A stretch of 64,000 bases of DNA from Actinomycetospora termitidis (lineage in GTDB: Bacteria; Actinomycetota; Actinomycetes; Mycobacteriales; Pseudonocardiaceae). A model generated the notes under the pieces. It searched no databases. It saw nothing but the letters and a program-made list of their open reading frames with translations, and had not been told where the DNA came from. The stretch spans positions 62,001 to 126,000 of the forward strand of contig NZ_JASVWF010000009.1 of NCBI RefSeq assembly GCF_030286555.1, in the 5' to 3' direction. This document shows, one piece after another, positions 5,633 through 44,067 of the stretch; the stretch's first letter is position 1; the number at the start of each line of letters is the position of its first letter. The position numbers and the translations under genes are program-made.

Positions 5633-5643
5633 GGAGACGCACC

Positions 5644-6297: not shown

Positions 6298-6303
6298 CCG
6301 CAC

Positions 6304-6335
6304 GCGGTGGGTGGTCGGCGACGACCGCCCACCGC
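6304..6335 (+). terminator. Hairpin after clpP2
   Basis: Arms GCGGTGGGTGGTCG and CGACCGCCCACCGC pair at 13 of 14 positions around a GCGA loop. It lies directly after the clpP2 stop and has no T-run, like most hairpin terminators in this window. Confidence 0.65.
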
Positions 6336-6495
6336 GTCGCCCGGCCGGGACGGCGCGTCGCCACCGGTCTCGGGCACACGACCAGCAGGATCGCCGCACC
6401 CCGAAGCCTCCCGCCCCGGCGGATCCGACGGGTACGGTCAATCACGACAGCGCGCACCGTCCGGGTGCGCCGGATGGGACACGGGGTCTGCTGCG

Positions 6496-7782: not shown

Positions 7783-7798
7783 GCCGCACCCGGACCCT

Positions 7799-7842
7799 GA
7801 ACGGGCCGCTCATCACCTTCTTGCGTGATGAACGGCCCGTTC
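7799..7842 (+). terminator. Strong hairpin after clpX
   Basis: Two 18-base arms, GAACGGGCCGCTCATCAC and GTGATGAACGGCCCGTTC, pair at 17 of 18 positions around an 8-base loop. It lies between the convergent clpX and esterase genes and could stop both. Confidence 0.8.
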
Positions 7843-7865
7843 GCTTGTCACCGGGGGAGCCGCGC

Positions 7866-8813
7866 CTACAGGTGCGGGAACGCCGTCGACGACGAGGCCG
7901 GCCCGAACGGCAGCGGCGACGGCGCGACGTGCTGACCCAGGAACGCGATCACCTGCGGCAGGATCGTCGCGTAGTACGACCCGGTGTGCGCCCCGGGACC
8001 GATCCGCGAGTACTGCGGGCGCGCCACGTCGATGTAGCGCCGCACGGCCGGGGCGAACGCGTCGCGGTCGCCGCACCACATCCCCGTCGGGGTGCCGGCG
8101 AGCTCGGGGTAGAAGCGCAGCGGGTCGTTCGCGATCCAGTCGGCGGCGCCGGCGAACGGCCGCCGCGCGGCGACCGCCCAGTCGAGGAACAGGCCCGGGG
8201 ACATCGCGGCGACCGCCTTTACGGGGGTCTGCCGCTGCACCCGGGCCCGGGCGTACATCAGCGCGCCCGCCCCGCCCATGGACACCCCGCTCGCGAGCAC
8301 GGGGACGCCGGCGGTCTCCCGCGCCATGCCCCGCTCACCCAGCCACACGGGCAGCTCGTCGAGCAGCATCCGCATCGGGTCGTCGCCGGGGCGGAACGGG
8401 TGCCAGTAGTTGTCCCCGCCGTCGAGCGCGGCGACCGCGAACCGCGGGACCCCGGACGCCCAGGCCGTGCCCAGCGCGCGGCGCATCCCGGGGTCGCCCC
8501 ACCAGAGCGCGTTGCCGCCCAGCCCGTGCAGGCCGACGGCCACCGGGAGGGTCGTGCGGTCGACCCCCGCGGGCGCGGTGATCACCAGCCGGACGGAGCG
8601 GTTCCGCGCCGCGGAGCGCACCCACTCCACGGTGGCGACCGCGTCCGGCGCGCGCGGGGGACGTGGCGCCGCCGGGACACGCTGCGGGATCGGCGCGGGG
8701 GTCTCGAACGAGCCGGCGAGAGACGTGGCGCCCGCGGCCAGCGCGCCCGCTCCGAGGACGGCGCCACCGCCGACGAGGAGCCGTCGACGGCTCACCCGCT
8801 GCTGCCCCGACAC
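7866..8813 (-). CDS. Exported alpha/beta hydrolase (esterase), Tat signal
   Basis: A 315-residue secreted hydrolase. The N-terminus has a twin-arginine-like signal (SRRRLLVGGGAVLGAGALAA). The alpha/beta hydrolase core shows GLHGLGG for the oxyanion hole, the nucleophile S178 in GVSMGG, an acid candidate D249 or D251 in WCGDRDAF and H276 in GAHTGSYY. The fold resembles esterase D/mycolyltransferase-like enzymes; the substrate is unknown. It lies 60 bp downstream of fdhD on the same strand and may share its transcript. The functional link is not evident. Confidence 0.85.
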   Translation of the reverse strand: MSGQQRVSRRRLLVGGGAVLGAGALAAGATSLAGSFETPAPIPQRVPAAPRPPRAPDAVATVEWVRSAARNRSVRLVITAPAGVDRTTLPVAVGLHGLGGNALWWGDPGMRRALGTAWASGVPRFAVAALDGGDNYWHPFRPGDDPMRMLLDELPVWLGERGMARETAGVPVLASGVSMGGAGALMYARARVQRQTPVKAVAAMSPGLFLDWAVAARRPFAGAADWIANDPLRFYPELAGTPTGMWCGDRDAFAPAVRRYIDVARPQYSRIGPGAHTGSYYATILPQVIAFLGQHVAPSPLPFGPASSSTAFPHL

Positions 8814-30469: not shown

Positions 30470-32311
30470 TCACTCTCGCCGGTTGATCGGCTCCCGTCCA
30501 GCGCCCTCCGCCGGCAGCCTGACCCGCACCCGCCATCCGGCCCCGCACGGCCCCGCCTCGATCGCGCCGTCCGCGACCCGCTCCCTCATCCCCACCAGCC
30601 CGTGCCCGCCGGCCGGGGGTGGCCTGTGCCCGGGGACGGGCCCGTCGTCCCGGACCTCCACCTCGGTCGCCGGCCCCGCGGCGCGGACCTCCACCGTCAC
30701 CCCGGTGGGGCCCGCGTGCTTCGCCACGTTGGTGAGTGCCTCCCGGACCACCTCCACGACCGTGGACACCGGCTCGGTGCCGTCGTCGACCTCGATGCGG
30801 ACCTCGCCGCCGGAGGCCCGCAACGGCGCCGCGAGGTCGTCGAGCGCGGACCGGAGGTCGTCGTCGTGGCCCAGCGCCTCGAACAGCGAGGGGAGGCCCT
30901 GCAACGTCCGTCGCCCGGTGGCGCGCAGGTGCACGACCGCGTCGGCGAGCAGGTCGGGGCGGCCGGCCCCGACCGACCGTGCGGCCGCGGCCTGCACCGC
31001 CATGCCCGAGACGTGGTGGGCGATCCCGTCGTGCAGGTCCCGGGCCAGCCGGAGTCGTTCCCGACGGCGGGTGTCGGCCGCCAGCGCGGCCCGGTCGGCC
31101 GCGGCCGCGGCGTCGCGGGCGATCCGCTCGCTGCGCCCCAGGAGCCCGGCACCGACCACGACGGCCGTCGTGACCAGCGTGGAGATCATCGCCCCGACCG
31201 TCCCGCCCGCGGACGCCTCGGGTAGCACGCCGAACCCGACGGCCGCGAGGCTGACCACCAGCACGACACCGACGCTGAGGACGACCGCGCCGACGGCCCG
31301 CCGGGGCGTGGCGTACACGACCGTGGAGTACGCCAGGACCGCCCAGGCCACGACCGCGGCGAGCTGGCCACCGCCCCCGGCTCCGACCACCGTCGACGCC
31401 GAGGCCAGGGTCGCGACGACCAGGGCGGCCGCCGGTGCCCGGCGCCGGAATCCGGTGGCCCCGAGCTGGAGCACGAGGGCGACGACGCCGGCGACCGTGC
31501 CGGGCAGGGCGAGCACGGCCGCCTGCTCGGGTGGGGTGACGCCGGGGAGCCCGAGGACGAGAGCCAGGACGGCGAGCGCGGTCGGCGTGAGCGGGTCGAG
31601 CGCCGGAGCCGGGGCCGCGCGGGCGGACGCCTCCTGGACGGGCGGGTCGCGCAGCAGCGCCAGCATCTCGCGCAGCGCGCCCAGTGCGGCGCGGGCCGAG
31701 TCGGCCACGGCGGCGAACGCCTCCGGCGGTCCGTCGGGGTCGAGGTTCTCGGCGCGGGTCACGGTGTCCTCGAGGTGGCCGCGCACGGTGCCGTGCAGCG
31801 TCGCCGCCACCGTCCGGCGCTCGGCCTCGGCGGCCGCGGCCCGCTGCGCGGTGTCCTCCGCAGCCCGGCGTCGGGCGCGGCCCACCACCACGTGACGCCG
31901 GACCGCCCCCGCGACGCCCCCGACCACGACGGCACCCAGCGGCGCGAGAACGGGAGTCCCGGACGCCGTCGCGAGCGCTCCCGCCGCAGCGGCGGTCCCG
32001 GCGGTGGCGGCCAGGGCCGCCCCCGGTCCGGCGGACCGCGCGAGGGTGCCGACGAGGACCGCGAGGACCAGACCGAGCACCGGTCCGCCCGCCGCCGCGG
32101 TCAGCCCGGCGCCCACCAGCGCCACTGCGAGCGCGAGCACCGGGGCGTCGCGTCGGGCCAGGACCGGCAGATGGCCGAGCAGCCCGATCCCGACGACCGC
32201 GGCACCCGGCAGCCGGCCCGGGACGAGCGGCCCGGTGAGCAGGGTGGACACCGCCCACGGGACGAACAGCAGCACGAGGATCGCGAGGTCGACCCGCCGT
32301 GCGCGGGTCAC
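30470..32311 (-). CDS. Two-component histidine kinase with duplicated membrane-DHp unit
   Basis: A 613-residue NarL-type (HisKA_3) kinase with an unusual build. Residues 1-145 form a first membrane block and 160-222 a first DHp-like helix pair with H173 in VAATLHGTVRGHLED. A second membrane block (about 245-390) follows, then a canonical DHp with H427 in RLARDLHDGIAHHVSG and one HATPase domain with N-box REALTNVAKHAG and G-box GHGLVGMRERV. The first unit thus lacks its own ATPase domain. It overlaps the response regulator stop by GTGA, so the two are a pair. Confidence 0.9.
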   Translation of the reverse strand: MTRARRVDLAILVLLFVPWAVSTLLTGPLVPGRLPGAAVVGIGLLGHLPVLARRDAPVLALAVALVGAGLTAAAGGPVLGLVLAVLVGTLARSAGPGAALAATAGTAAAAGALATASGTPVLAPLGAVVVGGVAGAVRRHVVVGRARRRAAEDTAQRAAAAEAERRTVAATLHGTVRGHLEDTVTRAENLDPDGPPEAFAAVADSARAALGALREMLALLRDPPVQEASARAAPAPALDPLTPTALAVLALVLGLPGVTPPEQAAVLALPGTVAGVVALVLQLGATGFRRRAPAAALVVATLASASTVVGAGGGGQLAAVVAWAVLAYSTVVYATPRRAVGAVVLSVGVVLVVSLAAVGFGVLPEASAGGTVGAMISTLVTTAVVVGAGLLGRSERIARDAAAAADRAALAADTRRRERLRLARDLHDGIAHHVSGMAVQAAAARSVGAGRPDLLADAVVHLRATGRRTLQGLPSLFEALGHDDDLRSALDDLAAPLRASGGEVRIEVDDGTEPVSTVVEVVREALTNVAKHAGPTGVTVEVRAAGPATEVEVRDDGPVPGHRPPPAGGHGLVGMRERVADGAIEAGPCGAGWRVRVRLPAEGAGREPINRRE

Positions 32312-32994
32312 GGGTCACCCCCGACCAGCCCGAGCTCGTGCGCCCGGACCACCAGCTGCACCCGGTCGCGCAGGTCCCACTTGGTCAGCACGCTCGACAC
32401 GTGCGTCTTCACCGTGCTCTCGGCGACCACGAGGGCGGCCGCGATCTCGGCGTTGCTGAGGCCGCGGGCCACCTGGGCGACCACGTCGCGTTCGCGGGCG
32501 GAGAGCCCGGGGGCCGTGTCCCGGGCCGGGGCGGACCCGCCGTCGTGATCGGAGGCGGTGGGGCCGAGCCGCACGAACTCCCCGATCAGCCGGCGGGTGA
32601 TCGACGGCGCGAGGAGGGCCTCTCCCGCGTGCACGAGCCGGATCGCCTCGACGAGGCGCTCGGGCTCGATGTCCTTCAGGACGAAGCCACCGGCCCCGGC
32701 TCGGAGGGCGTCGAAGACGTGCTCGTCGAGGTCGAACGTGCTCACCACCAGGACCTTCGTGCCGGTCGCCGCCGGGTCGTCCAGGATGGCCCGGGTCGCG
32801 GTGACGCCGTCCCCGGCCGGCATCCGCACGTCCATGAGCACCACGTCGGGCCGTAGGTGGGCTGCCACCGTGACGGCCTCCGGTCCACCCCCGGCCTCGC
32901 CCACGACCTCGATCCCCTCGGCCGCGTCGAGGATGGCGCGGAAGCCGGCCCGCACCACGGCCTGGTCGTCGACCACGAGCACCCGCACGGTCAT
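32308..32994 (-). CDS. NarL/LuxR-family response regulator
   Basis: A 228-residue DNA-binding regulator. The receiver domain has D10, the phosphoacceptor D55 in VLMDVRMPAG and the T/K positions of the family. The C-terminal LuxR HTH reads LSARERDVVAQVARGLSNAE followed by IAAALVVAESTVKTHVSSVL. The ATG at 32994 gives the conserved start MTVRVLVVDDQ. It is paired with the overlapping histidine kinase and lies 7 bp after the lipoprotein hydrolase gene. Target genes are not known. Confidence 0.94.
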   Translation of the reverse strand: MTVRVLVVDDQAVVRAGFRAILDAAEGIEVVGEAGGGPEAVTVAAHLRPDVVLMDVRMPAGDGVTATRAILDDPAATGTKVLVVSTFDLDEHVFDALRAGAGGFVLKDIEPERLVEAIRLVHAGEALLAPSITRRLIGEFVRLGPTASDHDGGSAPARDTAPGLSARERDVVAQVARGLSNAEIAAALVVAESTVKTHVSSVLTKWDLRDRVQLVVRAHELGLVGGDP

Positions 32995-33001
32995 GCGCCC
33001 A

Positions 33002-34549
33002 TCATGGGGCGAAGGGGGCACGGTCGGGCGGGCAGACGGTGCCGTCCGCGGGGAGGTCCCCGTCGACCAGGAAGCCGCTCGTGGCGGTCACGCTGCACCG
33101 CGACTGCTGCGCGGCGACGTGTCCCGGGCCGTCCACGACGAGCAGCGAGCTGCCCGGCAGGAGACGCTGCGTGGCCCGGGCGCCCGGCAGCGGCGTGGCC
33201 GGATCGGAGCGGTCGTTGACCAGCAGGACCCGGCCGGAGGTGCGGATCGGAGCGTCGAGCCGGGGGAGCGGGGCGGCCGCCCGGGCGGGCCAACCGAGGC
33301 AGAGCAGGGTCTCCTCGGCGCGCAGTGCCGCGAAGCGGGGCGCCATCGCGGTCCGGTCGTCCACGGAGGCCGCGTACTCGTCGGCGGTCCCCGGACCCGC
33401 GGTCTCCGAGCAGGTGACCGCGGCGAACGCGCTCATCACCGCCTCGGCCGTGGGATCACCGGCGGCGCGGACAGCGACACCCGTGGCCACCGCGTCGCCG
33501 ACCGCACCCCGCGGGTCCGTCAGGGCCTGCTCGACGGCGCCCAGGAACGGCGCGAGGGTGCTCCGCCAGGTGCTCGGCTGATAGAGCAGGGCGCCGATCT
33601 GCCCGACGACGTCGGGAGCGGTGAGGACGCGCGGGTCCTTCGCGCCGACGGTCGCCGGCAGGCGGGCGAGCAGGCGGTCGAGGGCCCCGGCCGGGTCGCT
33701 GCCGCCGAACGCGCACCGGGGACCGCCCGCCCGGCACGCGTCGAGGAACTCCGTGAGGGTCTCCTCCGTGCCGACGTCGGGGCGGGTGCGCGCGCTCATC
33801 GTGGATCGTCCCGCCGCCGCCCGACCCGGGGCGTCGATCACGCTGTCGAGGACGAAGCGGCCGACGCGGTCCGGGAAGAGATCCGCGTACACGACCGCGA
33901 GGAAGGTGCCGTAGGACTGCCCGACCAGGTCGAGCCGCTCCTCGCCGAGGGAGGCCCGGACCTCGTCGAGGTCGCGGGCGGCGTCGACGGTCGAGACGTG
34001 GGCGAGTGCGCCGCCGCTGCCCGCGGCGCACCGGGCGCGGACCCGGTCGTCGCGGGCGACGCGGTCGGTGAGTGCGGAGTGGGAGTCGGGGTAGGCGACC
34101 GGATCGGTGACGCGTCCGCCGCAGTCGATGCGGGGGCCGCTGCGGCCGGTGCCGCGCTGGTCGACCGCGACCACGTCGTACCGGTCGCGCACCGCGTCGT
34201 CGACGGGCGCAGGGAGGGTGCCGGCCGCGACCAGGCCGAGGTAGTCCACCGTGCCGTACCCGGGTCCGCCGCGGTGCAGGACGACGCTCCCGATGCGGTG
34301 CTCGGGATCGCGCGCGGGCAGGCGGGCGGCGGCGAGTGTCACCGTCCCCCCGGCCGGGTCGGCGCGGTCCAGCGGCACCTCGAGGCTGCCGCACTCCACG
34401 CCCGGGAGGTCGGGGCAGGGAGCCCAGCGGATCGGGGCGGTGCCCGGGCTGCCCGCACCGCCGGCCGCCGGCGGCGCCGCGCAGGCGGCCAGGAACAGGA
34501 CGACCGCGGCGATCGCACCGAGGGCCGGGAGCCGGCGGGGGCGGGGCAT
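33002..34549 (-). CDS. Exported lipoprotein alpha/beta hydrolase, TAP-like C-terminal domain
   Basis: A 515-residue secreted hydrolase/peptidase of the tripeptidyl aminopeptidase type found in actinomycetes. The signal peptide ends in a lipobox LAAC (C23), so the protein is predicted to be lipid-anchored. The oxyanion segment is HRGGPGYG, the nucleophile S212 in VGQSYGTF and the final His lies in [15 protein letters not shown] sits before the ATG at 34549. It heads a minus-strand run with the two-component pair, so it may sense or process an envelope signal; that is inference. Confidence 0.9.
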
Positions 34550-34686
34550 CGAGTCCTCCTCGCGTTGCCGCGGGCCGGTCGGTCCGCGGGTGTGATCACG
34601 AGGCTGCCGAGCGCGGAGCGCGTGCACCTCCGGCGTGGGGCGGAATGATCGCGGCGCCACCTCCCCCGCGAGACGGAGGCCTTGTC

Positions 34687-34702
34687 GGTAACGGTTATCA
34701 TT
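34687..34702 (+). promoter_or_regulatory. Zur-like site over the -10 of rpmF
   Basis: The A/T-rich stretch GGTAACGGTTATCATT stands out from its surroundings. Its right half, GTTATCATT, matches the half-site of actinobacterial Zur boxes, and the left half GGTAAC is a weaker inverted copy. TATCAT (34696-34701) within it is a good -10 six bases before the ATG. Confidence 0.5.
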
Positions 34703-34707
34703 TGCTC

Positions 34708-34878
34708 ATGGCTGTCCCGAAGCGGAAGATGTCGCGGGCGAACACCCGGTCCCGTCGATCGCAGTGGAAGGCCGCGGCGCCGGACCTCGTGCCGATCACG
34801 GTGGACGGCCGCGTGATCCGCGTGCCGCGGCCGCTGGTGCGGGCCTACCAGCGCGGGGTGTTGCGGCCGGAGGACTGA
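34708..34878 (+). CDS. rpmF: 50S ribosomal protein L32, cysteine-free form
   Basis: A 56-residue L32 protein starting [20 protein letters not shown]. It has no cysteines, so it is the zinc-independent type that replaces the zinc-ribbon form when zinc is scarce. The ATG lies six bases after TATCAT and has no Shine-Dalgarno, so the message is probably leaderless. A Zur-like site overlaps that promoter. Its 3' end overlaps the convergent membrane protein gene by 34 bp. Confidence 0.93.
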
Positions 34879-36446
34879 CCCGCCGTCGCCACCACGGCCG
34901 CCGTCAGCACCCCTCCGGTGAGGACGAGCGCGTACGACCCGAGCCACACGTGCTTCGCGAGCTCGCAGTACCCGTCGCCCAGCACCGCCACGACGACGAC
35001 GCCGACGCCGGTGACCGCGAGCAGCGACGAGACGCGCGCGAGCCCCACCGCGGTCGGTGGGAGGCGCCGCCGTGCTGCGGGGACGAGGGTCGAGGCCCCG
35101 GCGAGCAGCGCCAGGGCGACGACCGTCGGCGGCACCCACCGACCGGGTAGGCCGTCGAGGTAGACGAACATCGGACCCATCGTCTGGGACCCCTCAGGCA
35201 CCGGCGGCGCGTCCGCGACGGTCCCGTCGACGGTGCGCGCACCGCCCGTGGCGGAGGCCAGGTACGGGATCTGTGGACGCAGGGTGGCCACGAGACCGCG
35301 GTGCACCATCCGGGCGAGCACCACCGGGTGCCTGGCCACGAAGCGCAAGGCGTCCGTCCGCAACTCGTCGGACCGGTCGCCGACCGTCGCCTGCCAGTCC
35401 CGCACGCTGCGCCCGCCGTCGAGGTAGAAGTGCTGGCCGGACTGCCCCCAGGCGTCCGGGTGGAGCCCGAGGGGCCCGGTCGCCGACGGCCCGGCTTCCG
35501 GGAGCACCGCGGTGAACGCGAGGTTGTGGGCGTTGACCCAGGCGTACGACGCGTTCTGCGCCCGCAGCCCGCCGAGCACCGGCGCTGCGGAGATCCCCAC
35601 GACGAGCACCGCGGCCAGGACCCCGGGGACACGGCGCCGCCAGGGCGTCGTCCCGACCGTGACCAGCAGGCACGCGACGACGGCGGCGAGGCCGACGGGC
35701 AGGAAGCCCGGCTTCGCGGTGACGGCCACGATGCCGCCGATCGCGACGAGCCCGAGCCCGATCACGCGGGTGCCGCGCGCGGTCGGGCGGGTGAGGGCCA
35801 GGGCGAGCAGGCCCCACGCCGTCCACACGATCCCGACGAGCCCCGCGGCCTCGCTGAACGAGGAGACCAGGAAGCGCGACCACCACGGCACGACGAGGAG
35901 CGGCGCCGCCGGGACGCCGATCACGAGGAGCAGGGCGGGGACGCTGCGCCCGAGGCGACGACCCTGCGTGGCCGTGAACGCCGCGGCGCCGGCGCCCACG
36001 ACCAGCAGGGCGACGTAGGCGGCTCCGAGCCACTCGAGGGAGAAGCGCGTGGAGCCGTCCGGCGCCGCGGGCGTCGGGTCGAGCGCCGTCGCGACGGCGA
36101 CGGTCGCCTGCAGCACGAGACCGGCCGAGGTGATCGCGGTGTCGCGCGAGCAGCCCGGGCCGCCGGTGCGGTACTCGGTGATCGCGACGCCGTGACCCGG
36201 CGCGGTGCGGTCGGTCGTGTCCGGCACGAGGTGCGCGACGCAGTACAGCCGGCCGGCATCGCCGTTGTCCGCCGCCCCGATCGCGTCGCCGCCCACCAGG
36301 CCGAGCCGCAGGACCAGGCCGCCCGCGAGCAGGAGCGCGACGGAGGCGGCCAGCAGCACGCGTGCGGCGACCGCGGAGGGGCGCGAGGCCTCGGTCGTCA
36401 GCACCGGCGGGACGGGGACGTGCTCCGCCGGCACGGTTGCGGTCAT
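34845..36446 (-). CDS. Multi-pass membrane protein, GT-C/WsfD-like, copy 2
   Basis: A 533-residue paralogue of the protein at 26558-28213. It has the same ordered motifs: [49 protein letters not shown] and [12 protein letters not shown]. About ten membrane helices are predicted by eye. The acidic DNGD after the first helix suggests a GT-C-type glycosyltransferase acting on the outer face of the membrane. GGGAGAACG precedes the ATG. The two copies lie 6.6 kb apart, both on the minus strand, with unrelated genes between. Confidence 0.75.
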
Positions 36447-36645
36447 CGTTCTCCCGGTGGTCCTCCGGGGGCGACGACGACCCAGGCGACGTGGACGCGG
36501 TCAGAGTGCCAGACGGAGCTCCGTGCAGCCCCGGAAGGTTCTCCTGGTCGACGGTCGCAGTACCTGGAGGGACATCCACGTCGGAGTGGCCCCGGCAGAC
36601 CCGTCCCGAATTGGCCGAACGGGTGAAGCTTCTGCGCCGACCGCA

Positions 36646-36657
36646 ACGTAGATACGT
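36646..36657 (+). promoter_or_regulatory. Small dyad ACGTA-GA-TACGT upstream of the two-gene island
   Basis: A perfect 5-bp inverted repeat 43 bases before the first island gene. It lies in the 254-bp gap (36447-36700) where base composition already drops. It may be an operator; nothing else distinctive was seen in the gap. Confidence 0.3.
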
Positions 36658-36700
36658 CGATGAGCGAGAAGGGAATCGACAACGAGATCGGGGGCTCTGC

Positions 36701-37867
36701 ATGCACGACGATCCAGACGACTTCACGCCCAGCTTGGACGGCGATGACCTCGCCATCGTCGAACTCCTGCAACTTCGGCTGATGACGAAGGACGTCGAAG
36801 CAGAACGGGCTGTCGAGCGGCGTGCGAAGAAGCTGGACACACGCGATGAGACCGCTGACCGGTTGGCATCGATCCTCGCGGTTGCCCCTCCAGGAGCCTC
36901 GAGTTGGCGTCTCGAGCTGACAGAGAGCCTGCGAGAGCGCACGACGATCGAGGCGCGTGAGGTGCTGGCCCGAAGCGGTCGGACGGCCTCTGCCCACATC
37001 AAGGGGCGCGAAGACGCGCTCTGCGTTCTGGTCGCGCTCGCTACGAGCTCGCCATGGCCGGACGGCCTCGCTTGGGTGCCCGCCGCACGCATCCGCGTCC
37101 TACAGGATGTTGCCTCTGAGCTGGACGACGCGGGGCAGGCAGACGTCGAGGCGATTGAACACGAGCTCGGCAAGCTCCTCCGGACGATGAAGCGGGAGCA
37201 GATCCCGTGGGGACGCGTTGCCGCAGCGGGTGCCGCAGGCGTCGTGCTCGGCGCCGTGACCATGGGGTACGCGGCACCAATGGTCGGTGCCGCGCTCGGC
37301 GGAGCCATGGGCCTCAGCGGGGCTGCGGCAACCTCTGCCGGTCTCGCGGCCCTCGGGGGCGGCTCTCTGGCAGTCGGAGGGTTCGGGATGGCGGGCGGTG
37401 CGGCCTTCGTCGCGAGCGCAGGTGGCCTGCTCGGAGCCGGACTGGGTGCCGGCGGCATGCGCGTCGCCGGATGTCCGACTCAGTCGCCCGTGCAGGACGT
37501 GGTTCGGACCGAACTCCTGGCCCGGCTCCTCTTCGAACACGAGCGGACCGATGACGAGGCTCTCCGGCGGGTCGTCCTCGTGATGGAGGAGAAGCTCGTC
37601 GAGGTTCGGTCGAAGGTGAGCCTGCTCGCCGAGCGAGTGCGTCAACTGGAGGAGGAGAAGCGGGAACTCGAGAGCGAGGTCGCGCGTCTTCGGCAGTCGA
37701 AGGGCCCCGAAGAGGCTCCTTCGCCGGAGCTGTTCGAGGCTGAGGAGAAGCTCGAGCGGAACGGCCGGCATAGGGCCGAGAGTCGGACACTCCGGAGTGA
37801 GCTGCAGCTGTTGGTCGTTGCTCTCAGGGCCGCGATCCGGCGTCTGCAGCGACGGTTCGCCGGCTGA
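36701..37867 (+). CDS. Glycine-zipper membrane protein with coiled coil, unknown function
   Basis: A 388-residue protein not recognised as a named family. Residues 1-168 are a soluble, mostly helical, charged domain. Residues 171-258 are an unbroken Gly/Ala-rich hydrophobic stretch with GxxxG spacing (AAPMVGAALGGAMGLSGAAA, GGFGMAGGAAFVASAGGLLG), likely a membrane hairpin. Residues 293-334 form a coiled coil (LVEVRSKVSLLAERVRQLEE), followed by a basic tail. GGGGG lies eight bases before the ATG. Third codon positions are clearly less GC-rich than in neighbours, a sign of transfer. It is 13 bp upstream of the next gene, so the two form an operon. The build recalls membrane-active effectors, but this is only a likeness. 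Confidence 0.8.
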   Translation: MHDDPDDFTPSLDGDDLAIVELLQLRLMTKDVEAERAVERRAKKLDTRDETADRLASILAVAPPGASSWRLELTESLRERTTIEAREVLARSGRTASAHIKGREDALCVLVALATSSPWPDGLAWVPAARIRVLQDVASELDDAGQADVEAIEHELGKLLRTMKREQIPWGRVAAAGAAGVVLGAVTMGYAAPMVGAALGGAMGLSGAAATSAGLAALGGGSLAVGGFGMAGGAAFVASAGGLLGAGLGAGGMRVAGCPTQSPVQDVVRTELLARLLFEHERTDDEALRRVVLVMEEKLVEVRSKVSLLAERVRQLEEEKRELESEVARLRQSKGPEEAPSPELFEAEEKLERNGRHRAESRTLRSELQLLVVALRAAIRRLQRRFAG

Positions 37868-37880
37868 GGCGGAGCGAGAT

Positions 37881-39014
37881 ATGGGCTACGACGACGCCGC
37901 TATGGTTCTCGATGCGCAGCGCCGCAGACTCGCCGAGATCGAGGCCGCCGTTGATGCAGCCTTGGCCGGTGAAGCGATCGATCTCTCCCCACATGTCGAG
38001 ACGTCCTCCTACGAGGAGGTGGTCGAGGCGACGCGCACGCTTCGAGCGGAGCGGGACTGGGAGGGTCACCTACCTCTCCCTGGCCGAGGTCGCCTCCCGT
38101 GGGCGCGGGAGGACCTGGCCGTCGCAGGTCTGGCCGGTGCTGTCGGCTTCGCTGCGGCCTGGTTCGACGCACCGATCGACGGCTTCGTGCGCGAGCGCAT
38201 GAAGAAGCTGGGCGACACCGACCTGATCAAACGCTGGGAGCGTGAGGCCAAGCTGCCGATCGATTTCATGGGCAAGGGCTTCGGCGGGCCGAACCACCGA
38301 GTGCGGAGTTCGGGGCACGACATCCTGCGCCCTGTCTCCGCACTACGTCAGATCAAGAGCGGCTGTTTCGAGGGGCGTCGTTGGAGCGGGGACGCTCCTC
38401 TTCGGGAATCGATTCCGGTCACCGGTGGTGTCGAGTCGACGGCCGAAGCTCTGATCCTCTGGTGCAAGCACCTCGCGTCGGACGTGTTCAGTGATCGGAG
38501 TCTGCCGATCCCGGGGTGGACGTTCCTGAATGAACTTCCTTGGGAGGACGCTCAGAAGTTCGCCCGCTACGTCTACATGGGAAGGCGTGATGGCGCTCCG
38601 GGCCTCACGATGCGGACCCTCGCTCTGCAGCCACTGCCGGTGCTCGCAGTCGAGACGATCGTTCGGGTCCACGCCCACTCGCGGGCTCTTCATGAACGAG
38701 GCACACCCGCCTTGGAGCCCGAGGAGCGCGCACTGCGGGACGAGATGCTGCTCGCCGGTCACGCTCTGACGGCGGCCGGCTCGCTGGGAAGAACTCTCGC
38801 TACCGCCTACACCACGAGCGGGCCTCTGGCGCTCCGGCACATCAACCTGCCGTGCCTCCTCAGAACCGGGACCCTGGCGCATTCCGTGCTGGTCCAGCGC
38901 CACGATCGCCTTCCCGAGTGGTCCGAGCTCATCGCACGGATCGAGGAGCCGTGGAGCCTCGACCTCGCCGGTGAGATCGACCGTGCCGCAGCTATAGAAC
39001 TCCGGGCTACCTAG
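37881..39014 (+). CDS. Unknown protein with GKGFGGPNHR-SGHD motif, island partner
   Basis: A 377-residue protein of unrecognised family. Residues 1-60 are charged helix; 78-95 (DLAVAGLAGAVGFAAAWF) is a possible membrane helix; 131-147 holds the motif GKGFGGPNHRVRSSGHD, whose His and Asp look like conserved functional residues. Further hydrophobic stretches lie near LPVLAVETIVRV and LLAGHALTAAGSLG. GGAGCGAG precedes the ATG. Base use matches the upstream gene and differs from the flanks. Its TAG stop overlaps that of the convergent recQ-like gene in CTAG. Confidence 0.8.
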   Translation: MGYDDAAMVLDAQRRRLAEIEAAVDAALAGEAIDLSPHVETSSYEEVVEATRTLRAERDWEGHLPLPGRGRLPWAREDLAVAGLAGAVGFAAAWFDAPIDGFVRERMKKLGDTDLIKRWEREAKLPIDFMGKGFGGPNHRVRSSGHDILRPVSALRQIKSGCFEGRRWSGDAPLRESIPVTGGVESTAEALILWCKHLASDVFSDRSLPIPGWTFLNELPWEDAQKFARYVYMGRRDGAPGLTMRTLALQPLPVLAVETIVRVHAHSRALHERGTPALEPEERALRDEMLLAGHALTAAGSLGRTLATAYTTSGPLALRHINLPCLLRTGTLAHSVLVQRHDRLPEWSELIARIEEPWSLDLAGEIDRAAAIELRAT

Positions 39015-41131
39015 TTCGTGGTCGTCAGCGTGAACGGCAGCACGGCCGGCGCACCCGCACGGCGCAGGAGCATCGCGGCGACGGTGAGCGTCCACCCGGA
39101 GTCCGACACGTCGTCGATCAGCAGCACCGGCCCGGACGACGGGTCCACGCCGCTCGGGACGGACAGCCGCCGGTACACCTCGGCGAGCCGCTGGGCGGAG
39201 TTCGGCGGCTCGGGCTCGCTGTCGTCCTCGGGGTCGGAGTAGACCGGCGGCGCACTGTCGGCGAGCGCCCCGAGGAGCGGGAGCCGGCCGATCGAGGCGA
39301 TGCGCTGGGCGAAGCTCTCCACGAGAGCGGGCCGAGTTCGGCTCGGCAGCCACACGATCCCGGACGGCCGCTCCGACCAGCCCCACCCCTTGAGGACCTC
39401 GACGGCCGCGTCGACCACGGCGTCGGGCACGAGATCGTCGGAGCGCAGCAGCGGACGCAGGCGCGGACCCCACCCGACGTCGGTGAGCCGCCCGATCGCC
39501 CGGCCCTCCTCCATGGCCTCCTCGGGCTTGATCTTGCCCTTGAGCGGCACGTCGAGGGCGTCCATCCCGCTCGGCCACTGCTTGCGCGGCGCGAGCGGCA
39601 CGCCCGGACGGTCGAGCACCTCCTGGGCCTGCCCCCGGACGTCCTCGCCGACGGTCGGGTCGTAGTGCTTCCCGGTGCAGTTGTCGCAGCGTCCGCACGG
39701 CGCGGCGCCCGGATCGTCGAGCTGGCGGCGCAGGAACTCCATGCGGCAGCCGTCGGTGGCGATGTAGTCCAGCATCGCCTGCTGCTCGGCGCGGCGGGCC
39801 TTCGCGAGGCCGGTGTAGCGGGCGCCGTCGTACTCCCAGGGCTGCCCCGTGGCCTCCCAGCCGCCCTTGACCCGCTTCACCGCCCCGTCGGTGTCGAGGA
39901 CCTTGAGCATCATCTCCAGGCGCCCGCGCGACAGCTCGACGCGCGGCTCGAGCGCGGCGGTCGACATCGGGCGGCCCGCATCGCCGAGCACCGACAGCGC
40001 CACCCGCACCTGCGGCTCGCCGGGGAAGGCGAGCGAGGCGAAGTAGGCCCAGATGTCGCGGTCCTCCGGGCCGGGGAGCAGCAGCACCTCGGCGCGCTCG
40101 ACGCCACGGCCGGCACGCCCGATCTGCTGGTAGTACGCCACCGGCGACTGCGGGGCGCCGAGGTGCACCACGAACCCGAGGTCGGGCTTGTCGAACCCCA
40201 TGCCGAGCGCGCTCGTGGCGACCAGGGCCTTGACCCGGTTGGCCAGCAGGTCGTCCTCCGCCCGCTCGCGGTCGGCCGGGTCGGTCTTGCCGGTGTAGGC
40301 CGCGACCGCGTGGCCGCGCTCGCGCAGGAACGCCGCCAGCTCGTCGGCCGCGCTGACCGTGAGCGTGTAGATGATCCCCGACCCCGGCAGCTCGTCCAGG
40401 TGCTGCGCGAGCCAGGCGAACCGGTCGGCGCCCTTCGGCAGCGGCAGGACACCGAGGCGCAGGGACTCCCGGTCGAGCTCGCCCCGCAGGACGAGCGCGC
40501 CGTCGCCGTCGCCCGCCACCCCGAGCTGGTCGGCGACGTCGGTGGTCACGCGGTCGTTCGCCGTCGCCGTGGTGGCGAGGACGGGCACGCCCTCGGGCAG
40601 CTCAGAGATCAGGGTGCGCAGGCGGCGGTAGTCGGGCCGGAAGTCGTGCCCCCAGTCGGAGATGCAGTGGGCCTCGTCGACCACCAGGAGCCCGGCGGTG
40701 CGCGAGAGCTCGGGGAGCACCTGATCACGGAACTCCGGGTTGTTCAGCCGCTCCGGGCTGACCAGCAGCACGTCGACCTGACCGGCGCGGACCTCGCCGT
40801 AGACCGCGCCCCAGTCGTCCGTGTTGGCGGAGTTCACCGTCACCGCGCGGATACCGGCGCGCTCGGCGGCCTCGATCTGGTTGCGCATCAGCGCGAGCAG
40901 CGGGCTGACGATCACCGTCGGCCCCTTCCCGCGGGCGCGCAGCAACGCCGTGGCCACGAAGTAGACCGCGGACTTGCCCCACCCGGTGCGCTGCACCACC
41001 AGCGCGCGCCGCCCGTGCGCGACCAGCGCCTCGATCGCCCGCCACTGGTCCTCACGCAGGACGGCATCCGGCCCGGCGAGGCGCTGCAGGGTGGCCTCGG
41101 CGTCGGCTCGCAGGTCGGTCGCGACGGTCAT
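39011..41131 (-). CDS. RecQ-family DNA helicase fused to a phosphoribosyltransferase domain
   Basis: A 706-residue ATP-dependent 3'-5' helicase. Walker A QRTGWGKS (47-54), DEAH (152-155) in VVDEAHCISDWGHDFRPDYR, the SALGMGFDKPDLGFVVH and QIGRAGRG helicase motifs and the zinc cluster CGRCDNC are present. The C-terminus ends in a PRTase-like segment with the PRPP-binding motif LLIDDVSDSGWTLT (about 670-683). The ATG at 41131 gives MTVATDLRADAEATLQRL; longer readings run into repeat DNA. Such fusions occur in actinomycetes; the role of the PRTase part is unknown. Confidence 0.92.
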   Translation of the reverse strand: MTVATDLRADAEATLQRLAGPDAVLREDQWRAIEALVAHGRRALVVQRTGWGKSAVYFVATALLRARGKGPTVIVSPLLALMRNQIEAAERAGIRAVTVNSANTDDWGAVYGEVRAGQVDVLLVSPERLNNPEFRDQVLPELSRTAGLLVVDEAHCISDWGHDFRPDYRRLRTLISELPEGVPVLATTATANDRVTTDVADQLGVAGDGDGALVLRGELDRESLRLGVLPLPKGADRFAWLAQHLDELPGSGIIYTLTVSAADELAAFLRERGHAVAAYTGKTDPADRERAEDDLLANRVKALVATSALGMGFDKPDLGFVVHLGAPQSPVAYYQQIGRAGRGVERAEVLLLPGPEDRDIWAYFASLAFPGEPQVRVALSVLGDAGRPMSTAALEPRVELSRGRLEMMLKVLDTDGAVKRVKGGWEATGQPWEYDGARYTGLAKARRAEQQAMLDYIATDGCRMEFLRRQLDDPGAAPCGRCDNCTGKHYDPTVGEDVRGQAQEVLDRPGVPLAPRKQWPSGMDALDVPLKGKIKPEEAMEEGRAIGRLTDVGWGPRLRPLLRSDDLVPDAVVDAAVEVLKGWGWSERPSGIVWLPSRTRPALVESFAQRIASIGRLPLLGALADSAPPVYSDPEDDSEPEPPNSAQRLAEVYRRLSVPSGVDPSSGPVLLIDDVSDSGWTLTVAAMLLRRAGAPAVLPFTLTTTN

Positions 41132-41198
41132 GGCTCCACGAAAGCACAGGAGTCCGACACCGTGGGCCGCACCGGGTGGATCCGCCGGACCCGGGTCA

Positions 41199-41256
41199 CC
41201 GAGAAGCACACCAGGCACGTTCCGAGGCGGCGGAACGTGCCTCCTGTACCTCTCGG
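41199..41256. repeat. 58-bp hairpin with 26-base arms
   Basis: Arms 41199-41224 and 41231-41256 pair at 21 of 26 positions, including GGCACGTTCCG against CGGAACGTGCC, around the loop AGGCGG. Not followed by T residues and not at a gene end, so a terminator is unlikely. Confidence 0.6.
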
Positions 41257-41282
41257 CGAGCGGACCGCCGCCCAACACGTGC

Positions 41283-41338
41283 CGAGTGCGACACCACGCA
41301 GGACCTGCCGCCCCGGGACCTGCGTCATGTCGCACTCG
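41283..41338. repeat. 56-bp palindromic repeat, copy 1
   Basis: Begins CGAGTGCGACA and ends TGTCGCACTCG; the two 20-base arms match at 18 positions. The central GCCCCGGGACCTGCG part is shared with copies at 55578-55633 and 55661-55716. All three copies are exactly 56 bases long. Confidence 0.75.
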
Positions 41339-41387
41339 CGCCGGACCCTCGTCGTCCAGGCGCTCAGCGCGCGTTCGCATAAGGGTG

Positions 41388-41422
41388 TTGACCTCCGGCC
41401 GAGTGAGGTTAGGCTCCCCTTA
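41388..41422 (+). promoter_or_regulatory. Promoter with IdeR/DtxR-like iron box
   Basis: TTGACC (41388-41393) and TAGGCT (41410-41415) are spaced by 16 bases. The 19-base stretch TGAGGTTAGGCTCCCCTTA (41404-41422) matches the IdeR/DtxR consensus TWAGGTWAGSCTWACCTWA at 16 of 19 positions and covers the -10. Iron-dependent repression of the PPOX gene is predicted. Confidence 0.65.
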
Positions 41423-41439
41423 CTTAGACGGGAGGCGCC

Positions 41440-42066
41440 GTGGACGACTGGACCGTGATCACCGACGAGGCCGCGCTGCGCGAGGTCGTCGCCGAACCCC
41501 CGCGCGCCGTCGCGGACAAGGCGATCGACCACGTCGACGAGGAGTCCGCACGGTTCCTCGCCGCCTCGCCCTTCTTCCTCTTCTCGACGACGGGTGCGGA
41601 CGGTTCCGTCGACGTCTCACCCCGCGGCGACCCACCGGGCTCGGTGATCGTCCTGGAGGACGGGCGGCGCATCGCCTTCGGCGACCGCAAGGGGAACCGG
41701 CGCCTCGACTCGCTGCGCAACGTCCTCGAGCGTCCGCAGGTCGGGATGCTGTTCCTGGTCCCGGGCAGCAACGACACCCTGCGCGTCAACGGCACCGCGC
41801 AGATCGTCCGCGACCCGCCGTTCGCCCACCGGCTGGCGGTCGGGCGCTCGGTGCCCGACCTGGCCGTCGTCGTGACGGTGGAGGAGCTCTTCCTGCACTG
41901 CGCGAAGGCGTTCCTGCGCTCGACGCTGTGGGACCCGCAGAGCTGGCCCGACCCGGCCGACGTCCCGTCGGCCGGTCGCATGGCCCGCAGCCAGTTCGGG
42001 ATGAAGGTGCCCGCCGGCGTCATCGACGCCGCGCTGCGCGTCGGCAACCGCTTCACGAAGTACTGA
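41440..42066 (+). CDS. Pyridoxamine 5'-phosphate oxidase-family FMN protein (MSMEG_1061-like)
   Basis: A 208-residue split-barrel flavoprotein. The core FFLFSTTGADGSVDVSPRGDPPG and IAFGDRKGNRRLDSLRNVLE, given here in part, are typical of the PPOX subfamily of FMN- or F420-binding reductases. The GTG at 41440 follows GGGAGGCGCC. An IdeR-like box covers its promoter, so it may respond to iron and perhaps act in siderophore or haem handling; that is an inference. A methyltransferase gene follows after 23 bp. Confidence 0.88.
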   Translation: MDDWTVITDEAALREVVAEPPRAVADKAIDHVDEESARFLAASPFFLFSTTGADGSVDVSPRGDPPGSVIVLEDGRRIAFGDRKGNRRLDSLRNVLERPQVGMLFLVPGSNDTLRVNGTAQIVRDPPFAHRLAVGRSVPDLAVVVTVEELFLHCAKAFLRSTLWDPQSWPDPADVPSAGRMARSQFGMKVPAGVIDAALRVGNRFTKY

Positions 42067-42089
42067 CCAGACCGACGAGGAGACCGACC

Positions 42090-43118
42090 ATGACCGACGG
42101 GGCGACCGTCGAGGACCGCCGCGCCATCTCGGGGCTGGTGTTCGGCCACATGGCCGCCCAGGCGCTGGCTGCAGCGGTCCGGCTGGGCCTACCCGACCGG
42201 CTCGACGACGGGGGGCGCCCGGCCGCCGACGTGGCCGCCGACCTCGGGGCCGACCCGGCGGCGACGCTGCGGCTCCTGCGGGCCCTCGCGGCGCACGGGC
42301 TGGCGGCCGAGACGGGCTCCGGGGTGTTTGCACTCACCGAGCGAGGGGCCCTGCTGCGCAGCGACCGGCCGGGGTCGATGGCCGCCTTCGTCGAGATGTT
42401 CCTCGACCCGGCCATGGTCGCCGCGTGGGCCCGGCTCGACGACAGCGTGCGCAGCGGCCGGACCACCTTCGACGACGTCTTCGGCACCGATTTCTTCGCC
42501 CACCTCGCCGCGCACCCCCACCTCTCCCGCACCTTCAACGCCTCGATGCGCCAGGCGAGTGCCGCGGTTGCCGCCGTGCTGCCCGGCGCGGTCGACCTGG
42601 GGCGGTTCGGCTCGCTCACCGACGTCGGCGGCGGGGACGGCACCCTGCTCGCCGCGATCCTGGCCGGCCATCCGCACCTGCGCGGCGTCCTGTTCGACTC
42701 CGCGGCCGGGTCGGCGGAGTCGACCGCCGCCGTCGCCGACTTCCCGGGCCGCGTCGAGGTGGTCACGGGGGACTTCTTCACGGCCGTGCCCTCCGGCAGC
42801 GACGCCTACCTGCTGAAGTCGATCGTCCACGACTGGGACGACGACACCGTGGTCACGATCCTGGGCCACGTCCGGAAGGTGGTGCCCGACCACGGGCGGG
42901 TGTTCGTCGTGGAACCCGTCCTGCCCGCGTCGGTCGACGGTTCGATGCACCCGAACATCTACCTGTCGGACCTGAACATGCTGGTCAACGTCGGGGGACG
43001 GGAGCGGACGGAGGAGGAGTTCCGGGGGCTGTTCGGCGCCGCCGGGTTCGACCTCGTCGCGGTCGACCCGCTGCCGGCACCGGCGGCGTTCAGCGTGCTG
43101 GAGGCCGCTCCCGCCTGA
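42090..43118 (+). CDS. SAM-dependent O-methyltransferase with dimerisation domain
   Basis: A 342-residue methyltransferase of the plant-type/acetylserotonin O-methyltransferase family common in secondary metabolism. Residues 10-90 are a winged-helix dimerisation domain (LLRALAAHGLAAETGSGVFALT); the Rossmann core has SLTDVGGGDGTLLAAIL for SAM binding, DFFTAVPSGSDAYLLKSIVHDW with the likely catalytic His-Asp, and LSDLNMLVNVGGRERTEEEF. GACGAGGAG precedes the ATG. It may share the iron-regulated promoter of the upstream gene. The substrate is unknown. Confidence 0.9.
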   Translation: MTDGATVEDRRAISGLVFGHMAAQALAAAVRLGLPDRLDDGGRPAADVAADLGADPAATLRLLRALAAHGLAAETGSGVFALTERGALLRSDRPGSMAAFVEMFLDPAMVAAWARLDDSVRSGRTTFDDVFGTDFFAHLAAHPHLSRTFNASMRQASAAVAAVLPGAVDLGRFGSLTDVGGGDGTLLAAILAGHPHLRGVLFDSAAGSAESTAAVADFPGRVEVVTGDFFTAVPSGSDAYLLKSIVHDWDDDTVVTILGHVRKVVPDHGRVFVVEPVLPASVDGSMHPNIYLSDLNMLVNVGGRERTEEEFRGLFGAAGFDLVAVDPLPAPAAFSVLEAAPA

Positions 43119-43176
43119 GCCCCGGCCCCGACCGCCGCCACCACATCCCGGGACAAGCCGACGATCAACGGGCAGG

Positions 43177-44067
43177 ATGCGGGCCGTGGGCAGCGACTCG
43201 ACCGGACGGACGACCCTCTTCGACTCCGTCGACGACGTCGTCTCGAGGCTGGCCGGCGTCGGGTACCTCGCGTCGACGGCCGTGGCGACGACCGTCTTCC
43301 TGGCCGACCGCCTCGGCAAGCCGTTGCTGGTCGAGGGCCCGGCCGGCGTCGGGAAGACCGAACTGGCGCGGGCGGTCGCCGAGGCGACGGGCTCAGGGCT
43401 GGTGCGCCTGCAGTGCTACGAGGGCATCGACGAGGCCCGGGCGCTCTACGAGTGGAACCACGCCAAGCAGCTGCTGCGTATCCAGGCGAGCCAGGGGCAG
43501 GCCTGGGACGAGGCCCGGGACGACGTCTTCTCCGAGGAGTTCCTGCTCACCCGCCCGCTGCTGACCGCCATCCGGCGCGACGAGCCGACCGTGCTGCTGG
43601 TCGACGAGACCGACAAGGCCGACGTCGAGGTCGAGGGGCTGCTGCTGGAGGTGCTGGGCGACTTCCAGGTCACCGTGCCCGAACTCGGCACGATCACCGC
43701 CACGCAGCGCCCGTTCACGCTGCTGACCTCGAACGCGACCCGGGAGCTGTCCGAGGCGCTCAAGCGCCGCTGCCTGTTCCTGCACCTGGACTTCCCCGAC
43801 GCCGAGCTCGAGCGGCGGATCGTCGCGGCGCGCGTCCCGCAGCTCCCCGAGGCGCTCGCGGAGGAGCTGGTCCGCATCGTCGGGGTGCTGCGCGGGCTGG
43901 AGCTGCGCAAGGCACCGTCGGTGTCCGAGACGATCGACTGGGCCCGCACCGTCGTCGCGCTCGGGCTCGACACGCTCGACGACGACGCCGTCCGGCAGAG
44001 CCTGAACGTCGTGCTCAAGCACCGGGCCGACCTGGTCAAGGCCACCTCCGAGCTGCGGTTGAACTGA
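43177..44067 (+). CDS. MoxR-family AAA ATPase
   Basis: A 296-residue AAA+ ATPase of the MoxR/CoxD type. Walker A GPAGVGKT (54-61), Walker B VLLVDETDKAD and sensor 1 LLTSNATRELSEALKRRC are present. It is coupled by TGATG to a VWA protein; such pairs help insert metals or activate partner enzymes. The ATG at 43177 is used, but a GTG at 43186 behind CAGGAT is equally possible. Here the M. tuberculosis-like gene order (Rv2426c-Rv2425c) resumes. Confidence 0.92.
   Translation: MRAVGSDSTGRTTLFDSVDDVVSRLAGVGYLASTAVATTVFLADRLGKPLLVEGPAGVGKTELARAVAEATGSGLVRLQCYEGIDEARALYEWNHAKQLLRIQASQGQAWDEARDDVFSEEFLLTRPLLTAIRRDEPTVLLVDETDKADVEVEGLLLEVLGDFQVTVPELGTITATQRPFTLLTSNATRELSEALKRRCLFLHLDFPDAELERRIVAARVPQLPEALAEELVRIVGVLRGLELRKAPSVSETIDWARTVVALGLDTLDDDAVRQSLNVVLKHRADLVKATSELRLN

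What the first reader, a model, noticed from the sequence alone, without database searches (positions are those of the whole stretch)
36701..39014. Two-gene, lower-GC island: glycine-zipper/coiled-coil protein plus SGHD-motif protein
Seen: two tightly spaced genes (13 bp apart) with composition unlike their flanks; one 60-base line counted by hand (38521-38580) has 33 G/C, a flanking line (35641-35700) has 47. Protein 1 has an 88-residue Gly/Ala-rich membrane stretch and a coiled coil; protein 2 has GKGFGGPNHRVRSSGHD. Neither is recognised. The pair sits beside a RecQ-like helicase gene inside a block that breaks conserved synteny. Inference: a transferred two-component membrane system, possibly defensive (sensor plus membrane-active effector) or secreted-conflict related.
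Basis: partly seen in the sequence, partly recalled or inferred. Interest (0 to 1): 0.75.

Follow-up and report, generated by a model that had tools for sequence, protein, structure and literature searches.

The report
Divergent Bunzi-like phage-defence gene pair
Two bacterial genes inserted beside a helicase gene look like a distant variant of the Bunzi anti-phage defence pair, in which the usual first partner is replaced by a different membrane-type protein; this gives a handle on a defence system whose mechanism is still unknown.

Summary
In detail: genes A (36701-37867) and B (37881-39014), 13 nt apart, with low GC3 (0.77/0.76 against 0.935-0.976 in seven neighbouring ORFs), on a ~2.5-kb insert. 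In 6 of 16 other same-genus genomes with the helicase gene the two flanking genes are adjacent instead; no B was found in 17 of 17 same-genus genomes. B is a remote but clear BnzB homologue (profile-profile E 2.7e-27). A is not the standard BnzA; it matches PADLOC's PDC-M09A and the A partner of an unmistakable BnzB on a Priestia plasmid (E 3.5e-20). The pair recurs beside Shango genes in P. oroxyli and on Rhodococcus plasmids, some with CBASS, SIR2 or E1-E2 genes nearby; one genome encodes a BnzB+A fusion. Best reading: a Bunzi subtype with an exchanged, apparently TerB-less, glycine-zipper component, and a B whose invariant His/Asp cluster suggests a metal-dependent effector (inferred). The helicase next door matches PsyrT but is core in the genus. 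Structure models were too poor to use. No phage test was seen. New variant of a known kind.

The parts
36515..39010 (.). Approximate extent of the inserted segment between the helicase stop codon and the conserved upstream strip of the left membrane-protein gene
   Evidence: In 6 same-genus genomes the two flanking genes are adjacent with a gap of 93-179 nt between the matches; the strip TCTGGCAC of the gap is kept in the window at 36506-36514. No repeats of 11 nt or more within either boundary stretch; across the insert only imperfect ones, e.g. 36391-36408 with 39114-39131, 83%.
36506..36514 (-). Conserved strip GTCTGGCAC upstream of the left gene: left border of the insert
   Evidence: TCTGGCAC shared with G005, G010, G007, G017, the four relatives aligned
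36701..37867 (+). Gene A, 388 aa: N-terminal region of unknown kind, Gly/Ala-rich hydrophobic stretch, C-terminal coiled coil; PDC-M09A-like / Bunzi A component
   Evidence: PADLOC PDC-M09A E 4.3e-7; hhalign to Priestia A partner of BnzB E 3.5e-20, 247 columns
37217..37459 (+). A residues 173-253: uncharged Gly/Ala-rich (glycine-zipper-like) stretch, probably membrane-embedded
   Evidence: strongly conserved among relatives
37553..37699 (+). A residues 285-333: predicted coiled-coil helix
   Evidence: sub-cut-off Pfam coil-type hits; helix in a low-confidence AF2 model, block pLDDT about 55-88 there
37881..39014 (+). Gene B, 377 aa: BnzB homologue
   Evidence: PADLOC BnzB E 1.7e-7; hhalign to the canonical-type BnzB set E 2.7e-27, 360 columns; HMM of 13 other BnzB-like sequences picks it alone among 256 window ORFs, E 6.2e-21
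38295..38321 (+). B residues 139-147, motif HRVRSSGHD
   Evidence: H139 and H146 in 21 of 21, D147 in 20 of 21 B sequences
38469..38483 (+). B residues 197-201, motif H-x3-D
   Evidence: H197 and D201 in 21 of 21 B sequences

Best explanation
The pair is a horizontally acquired, Bunzi-like anti-phage system of a divergent subtype. B is a distant BnzB. A stands in for BnzA but is a different (PDC-M09A-type) protein without a recognisable TerB domain. Most likely mechanism (inferred): A inserts into the membrane by its glycine-zipper stretch, assembles through its coiled coil and senses infection or its effect on the envelope through its N-terminal region; B, held at the membrane and probably in direct contact with A, carries an invariant His/Asp cluster (H139, H146-D147, H197-x3-D201) that looks like the site of a metal-dependent hydrolase, and on activation damages a membrane-linked or other essential target, so that the infected cell stops or dies before phage release. 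Shown: homology, pairing, a natural fusion, lateral acquisition, conserved residues. Inferred: membrane insertion, sensing, catalysis, outcome.
For: B to BnzB: seven of seven window-type B proteins scanned hit PDLC03834, E 3.4e-4 to 1.3e-9; profile-profile E 2.7e-27; a canonical BnzB finds a Rhodococcus member by tblastn, E 2e-4; an HMM of 8 window-type sequences finds 8 of 13 canonical-type ones, and the reverse HMM finds 8 of 8. A: six of six window-type A proteins scanned hit PDC-M09A, and A matches the A of Priestia L014, whose B is BnzB at E 1.1e-65. Pairing: of 12 loci with window-type B, 7 have intact A directly upstream, 4 a broken or partial A, 1 (L012) none seen. A natural single protein in G709 scores as BnzB (E 1.9e-37) plus PDC-M09A (E 1.7e-9). 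Setting: GC3 and empty site; large Rhodococcus plasmids, 9 records; an integrase-like ORF (by eye) beside the pair in L020; SngA and SngC next door in P. oroxyli; SIR2, E1-E2, CBASS, CD-NTase genes near it in two Rhodococcus plasmids. Invariant H/D residues.
Against: A does not hit the BnzA model and aligns to TerB-type BnzA only in the Gly-rich and coil part (99 columns, E 4.1e-7, composition-biased). Such regions score promiscuously: two Rhodococcus A proteins also hit LeoA (E 4.1e-7, 6.8e-6) and others. No TerB in A by Pfam or hhalign. In whole-genome scans PDLC03834 (E<=1e-3) and both PDC-M09A models (E<=1e-5) did not list the window's own genome. 5 of 13 canonical-type sequences are not found by the window-type HMM. 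Several Rhodococcus loci (e.g. L007, L009, L010) have metabolic or unassigned neighbours beside TA-like, helicase or transposase genes, not clear defence islands, and 5 of 12 copies have a broken, partial or missing A. AF2 models are too poor to test fold or active site; no credible PDB relative by sequence. The hydrolase idea has no significant match: YdjM comparison best E 0.024-0.28. Bunzi's own mechanism is listed as unknown (PMC12926258, passage).
Confidence: 0.72

Rival explanations
1. Roles reversed: A is the membrane-damaging effector (pore or membrane disruptor by its glycine-zipper stretch) and B is a sensor or regulator whose conserved His/Asp residues bind a ligand or metal.
For: A-like modules occur with unlike partners (BnzB here; PDC-M09B in L116, L117, L122; 143-144 aa proteins in L118, L123, L126), as a common membrane effector with exchangeable sensors would. 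A has the long hydrophobic stretch.
Against: The same modularity fits A as a common sensor or anchor. B carries the conserved polar cluster (H139, H146, H197, D201 in 21 of 21), more typical of catalysis.
Confidence: 0.35
2. It is a PDC-M09 system (PADLOC candidate) rather than Bunzi.
For: A scores best with PDC-M09A.
Against: PDC-M09's second protein, PDC-M09B, was found beside A-like genes in L116, L117 and L122, but B has no PDC-M09B hit at E<=10 and is a BnzB homologue.
Confidence: 0.08
3. A mobile conflict module not aimed at phage: plasmid competition, plasmid exclusion or general envelope-stress (Ter-like) response.
For: Relatives sit on large Rhodococcus plasmids; TerD genes follow the pair in L006 and L007 and one lies near it in L020; Ter systems are said to act in both phage and plasmid conflicts (PMC7824862, passage).
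Against: BnzB homology and neighbours that are anti-phage systems in some loci.
Confidence: 0.15
4. The pair works with the neighbouring PsyrT-like helicase, as part of one larger system.
For: The helicase matches PsyrT over nearly its whole length (E 8.4e-222) and ends in the same CTAG as B. Helicase genes are also near the pair in P. oroxyli (SngC) and L009 (annotated DEAD/DEAH).
Against: The helicase gene is in 16 other genus genomes, none of which has B, and it is convergent with the pair. PsyrA, the usual partner of PsyrT (recalled), gave no hit among five other flanking ORFs (E<=1e-5) or in A and B. The 12 loci were not scanned for a PsyrT-type helicase.
Confidence: 0.05
5. Ordinary housekeeping membrane genes with drifted composition.
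For: None found beyond intact reading frames.
Against: Not found in 17 of 17 same-genus genomes; found in 1 of 99 other genomes and 0 of 393; empty site.
Confidence: 0.02

Closest known systems
Bunzi (BnzA/BnzB)
   Same: Two adjacent co-directed genes, A then B; B homologous over most of its length with the same HR-GHD and H-x3-D motifs; TerB-type BnzA also has a Gly-rich hydrophobic stretch and a coil; plasmid-borne relatives.
   Different: A is not matched by the BnzA model and lacks a detectable TerB domain; B is shorter (377 aa against 426-511 for the four canonical BnzB proteins scanned) and the 8 window-type B sequences form their own branch, support 97/99.
PDC-M09 (PADLOC candidate, PDC-M09A/PDC-M09B)
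   Same: A is PDC-M09A-like
   Different: Partner is BnzB-like, not PDC-M09B
Shango (SngA/SngC)
   Same: SngA and SngC genes neighbour the pair in P. oroxyli; SngA there has TerB domains; SngB was not looked for
   Different: PADLOC lists no Sng model for A or B at E<=10
YdjM / DUF457 (PF04307) membrane putative hydrolases
   Same: An H-x3-D-x2-T strip, and an HR-x-x-[ST]-H-S motif in 9 of the 30 sequences taken; resemblance first recalled, then tested
   Different: No significant profile match (best E 0.024-0.28); motif spacing differs

Membership tests
Bunzi | BnzB component | tested here: met
   PADLOC E 1.7e-7; hhalign E 2.7e-27. Own genome not listed in the genome-wide scan with the same model at E<=1e-3.
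Bunzi | BnzA component | tested here: not met
   No BnzA hit at E<=10; only Gly-rich/coil similarity to BnzA, E 4.1e-7. An equivalent A does accompany a clear BnzB in Priestia L014 and is fused to one in G709.
Bunzi | TerB domain (named for Bunzi in PMC10952713, passage) | tested here: not met
   No TerB in A by Pfam or hhalign. Caveat: Lactococcus BnzA, which hits the BnzA model at about 1e-127, also showed none by Pfam (L016) or hhalign (L016+L018).
Bunzi | A and B adjacent, same strand | tested here: met
   13 nt apart; A, intact or as a remnant, at the 5' side of B in 11 of 12 loci with window-type B
Bunzi | Anti-phage activity | not testable with these tools
   needs an experiment
PDC-M09 | PDC-M09A component | tested here: met
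   E 4.3e-7 and 1e-5 with two models
PDC-M09 | PDC-M09B component | tested here: not met
   No hit of B at E<=10; three PDC-M09B proteins found elsewhere have no BnzB hit at E<=0.01
YdjM/DUF457 | Profile similarity | tested here: not met
   No Pfam hit; hhalign best E 0.024-0.28, probability 2 or less

The most novel reading that the evidence does not exclude
The glycine-zipper A protein is an interchangeable membrane module of bacterial immunity: it is plugged into different effectors (BnzB-type putative hydrolase, PDC-M09B, small unknown partners, possibly DNA-binding domains), so Bunzi and PDC-M09 are branches of one modular superfamily with a common way of sensing or attacking the membrane, and BnzB is a new class of metal-dependent membrane effector.
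Probability: 0.3. Interest if true: 0.75.

Novelty: new variant of a known kind. Interest (0 to 1): 0.52.

Why it matters
Bunzi is listed among systems of unknown mechanism (PMC12926258, passage). A subtype with an exchanged A component, a natural B-A fusion and a small set of residues conserved across the 21 B sequences compared narrows what is essential: B's His/Asp cluster and a Gly-rich module, perhaps not the TerB domain. It also links Bunzi with an untested PADLOC candidate (PDC-M09). A rule requiring the BnzA model plus BnzB would probably not call this pair, so the subtype is likely under-counted in Actinomycetota (inference; PADLOC's own rules were not run).

Tried and rejected
Structures: AF2 models from 3-row alignments were poor (A mean pLDDT 50.6; B 37.6), so no fold search was run. 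PDB sequence search: for B only a 41-position stretch of a fucose-binding lectin at E 0.0022, with no stretch passing on its own, taken as chance; none for A at E<=0.01. Enzyme family: YdjM/DUF457 was tested by hhalign, also with the order of B's segments changed in case of circular permutation; never significant, and the best alignment was always the H-x3-D strip. TerB in A's N-terminal part: none. Searches that found nothing: genome contigs with B alone, viral contigs with the 2-row alignment, phages by tblastn with a Rhodococcus B. Pfam and NCBIfam gave nothing for B and only sub-cut-off, mostly coil-type hits for A; PHROGs gave weak hits to families of unknown function (B phrog_36820 E 0.0012; A phrog_11952 E 0.0036), not pursued. 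Papers: PDC-M09, none; for Bunzi/BnzA/BnzB I saw 20 of 28, 5 of 7096, 7 of 7 and 10 of 10 listed titles and noticed no mechanistic study of the system among them. A secreted-conflict role was dropped for lack of support. No integrase was noticed by eye among the ORFs overlapping 32000-44000.

Full report
Observation. The window holds gene A (36701-37867) and gene B (37881-39014) on the + strand with 13 nt between them. Third-position GC is 0.77 and 0.76 against 0.935-0.976 in seven neighbouring ORFs. The window lies in contig C30 of a 6.56-Mb genome.

Insertion. The helicase gene to the right (39011-41380, -) is found in 17 of 18 genus genomes, own included, and carries DEAD, Helicase_C and RecQ_Zn_bind domains. 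PADLOC matches it to PsyrT over nearly its whole length (E 8.4e-222) and to DpdF models; since it is core in the genus, this is more likely a chromosomal relative than part of the insert. The left membrane-protein gene (34845-36446, -) has homologues in 16 of 18. In 6 of the 16 other genomes with the helicase gene (G002, G005, G006, G007, G010, G017) the left gene follows it directly, 93-179 nt between the matches. In G012 remnants of the left gene follow it. In the remaining 9 other sequence follows. The strip TCTGGCAC in that gap survives in the window at 36506-36514 (four relatives aligned), so the insert runs from about 36515 to the helicase stop at 39011. The helicase and B share the palindrome CTAG as their stops. 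B was not found in 98 of 99 other genomes (17 of 17 same-genus ones among them, three of these under 90% complete) nor in 393 of 393, where about four candidates per genome were scored and which overlaps in part. With a 9-row B alignment that includes one canonical BnzB, 4 of 395 other genomes of the phylum match.

Identity of B. PADLOC's BnzB model hits it at E 1.7e-7. The six other window-type B proteins scanned (P. oroxyli, four Rhodococcus, L020) hit at 3.4e-4 to 1.3e-9. A profile of 8 window-type sequences against one of 13 BnzB-like sequences gives E 2.7e-27 over 360 columns, probability 99.7. The HMM of those 13, which holds no window-type row, picks only B among 256 window ORFs (E 6.2e-21), finds 8 of 8 window-type sequences, and the reverse search finds 8 of 13. 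Six of the 13 (L022-L026 and a second gene in L018) were themselves found with an alignment holding window-type rows, so the most independent evidence is the PADLOC model and the plasmid tblastn from a canonical BnzB, which returned the Rhodococcus pLP337 gene at E 2e-4. Over the 21 sequences, H139, H146, H197, D201 and P211 are invariant, D78 and D147 are in 20, D128 in 19. In a tree of 23 B sequences the window type is one side of a branch (97/99), with the long row L024 next to it.

Identity of A. A hits two PDC-M09A models (E 4.3e-7 and 1e-5) and no BnzA model. The key link is a Priestia megaterium plasmid (L014): its B is BnzB at E 1.1e-65 and its A hits PDC-M09A, not BnzA. The window-type A profile matches that A at E 3.5e-20 over 247 columns, while to TerB-type BnzA it aligns only in the Gly-rich and coil part (99 columns, E 4.1e-7). 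Two Rhodococcus A proteins also hit LeoA at E 4.1e-7 and 6.8e-6, so weak hits in this kind of sequence need caution. TerB was not found in A; the same tests also missed it in Lactococcus BnzA, so that negative has limited weight.

Do A and B belong together? Of 12 loci with window-type B (window, L003, L005-L013, L020), 7 have an intact A directly upstream, 4 (L009, L010, L011, L013) a broken or partial A (in L011 and L013 B is broken too, and in L013 the A fragment overlaps the first B fragment), and 1 (L012) none that tblastn could see; L008 and L009 are near copies. In G749 the order is B then A. In G709 both are one 796-residue protein, scored as BnzB (E 1.9e-37) and PDC-M09A (E 1.7e-9) by PADLOC. 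In G883 a 645-residue protein joins a sub-cut-off TerB match (19.2 bits against 24.4) to a B-like domain (E 1.3e-5; motifs).

Neighbourhoods. P. oroxyli: SngA (E 6.2e-88) and SngC (E 9e-261) of Shango lie divergently next to the pair. Rhodococcus opacus S8 plasmid: a SMODS (CD-NTase) gene 94 nt downstream, and a CBASS cyclase and S-4TM effector further on. R. qingshengii plasmid: SIR2 (PDC-S65) and E1-E2 genes. L006, L007: a TerD gene follows the pair; L020 (IMG/VR contig): a TerD-DUF2510-HNH gene upstream on the other strand and, by eye, an integrase-like ORF on the far side. Other Rhodococcus loci show mostly metabolic, unassigned, helicase, transposase, RES/Xre or Fic/VbhA genes, and L012 and L013 carry no annotation. 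In the window, five other flanking ORFs scanned gave only a Cas-linked TAP-like label (E 1.1e-58 for 33002-34660) and one marginal hit, which I take as ordinary genes.

The A module elsewhere. PDC-M09A searches matched 5 of 198 phylum genomes with one model and 8 of 197 class genomes with the other; one genome, G116, is in both. In 12 loci examined, three downstream genes are PDC-M09B (L116, L117, L122), three are 143-144 aa proteins (L118, L123, L126; L123 has one marginal hit, E 0.006), two loci carry BnzB-like sequence (L119, L120), and four were not assigned. So the A module occurs with at least two unlike partners.

Mechanism. Shown: a strain-specific, laterally acquired pair; B a BnzB homologue with an invariant polar cluster; A with a long uncharged Gly/Ala-rich stretch; a B-A fusion in nature. 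Inferred: A anchors, oligomerises and senses or attacks at the membrane; B is a membrane-associated metal-dependent enzyme; the outcome is an abortive or growth-arrest response. For the related Ter systems a review proposes TerB and TerD as ligand-binding sensors beside membrane components (PMC7824862, passage). Bunzi is listed with unknown mechanism (PMC12926258, passage), and plasmid carriage of Bunzi is reported in Salmonella (PMC11305592, passages). The original Bunzi report was not read here.

Verdict.

Noticed in passing
window 39011-41380: The RecQ-type helicase beside the pair matches the PADLOC PsyrT model (E 8.4e-222); it is core in the genus and no PsyrA hit appeared among five other flanking ORFs scanned.
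   Followed up: partly
L003:212-6712: Shango genes (SngA with TerB_N/TerB/TerB_C, SngC helicase-exonuclease) lie divergently next to the homologous pair in Pseudonocardia oroxyli.
   Followed up: partly
L020:2059-3774: TerD-DUF2510-HNH fusion gene near the pair, with an integrase-like ORF (7487-8758, by eye) on the other side; TerD genes also follow the pair in L006 and L007.
   Followed up: partly
L129:615-3005: Single 796-aa protein that fuses a BnzB-like domain to a PDC-M09A-like glycine-zipper domain.
   Followed up: yes
L131:2175-4112: 645-aa protein joining a weak TerB match to a BnzB-like domain.
   Followed up: partly
L018:363-4858: Lactococcus plasmid with two BnzB-like genes flanking one BnzA.
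   Followed up: no
L118, L123, L126: PDC-M09A-like genes followed by a 143-144 aa protein with no convincing family hit, a possible further two-gene candidate.
   Followed up: no
L125, L128: PDC-M09A-like glycine-zipper segments behind what looks by eye like an XRE-type helix-turn-helix domain.
   Followed up: no
window 5351-7814: A second stretch (2314-base windows starting at 5351-5501) with GC nearly as low as the pair, about 67.5%.
   Followed up: no
window 39011-39014: The stops of B and of the convergent helicase gene overlap in one CTAG palindrome at the insert border.
   Followed up: no
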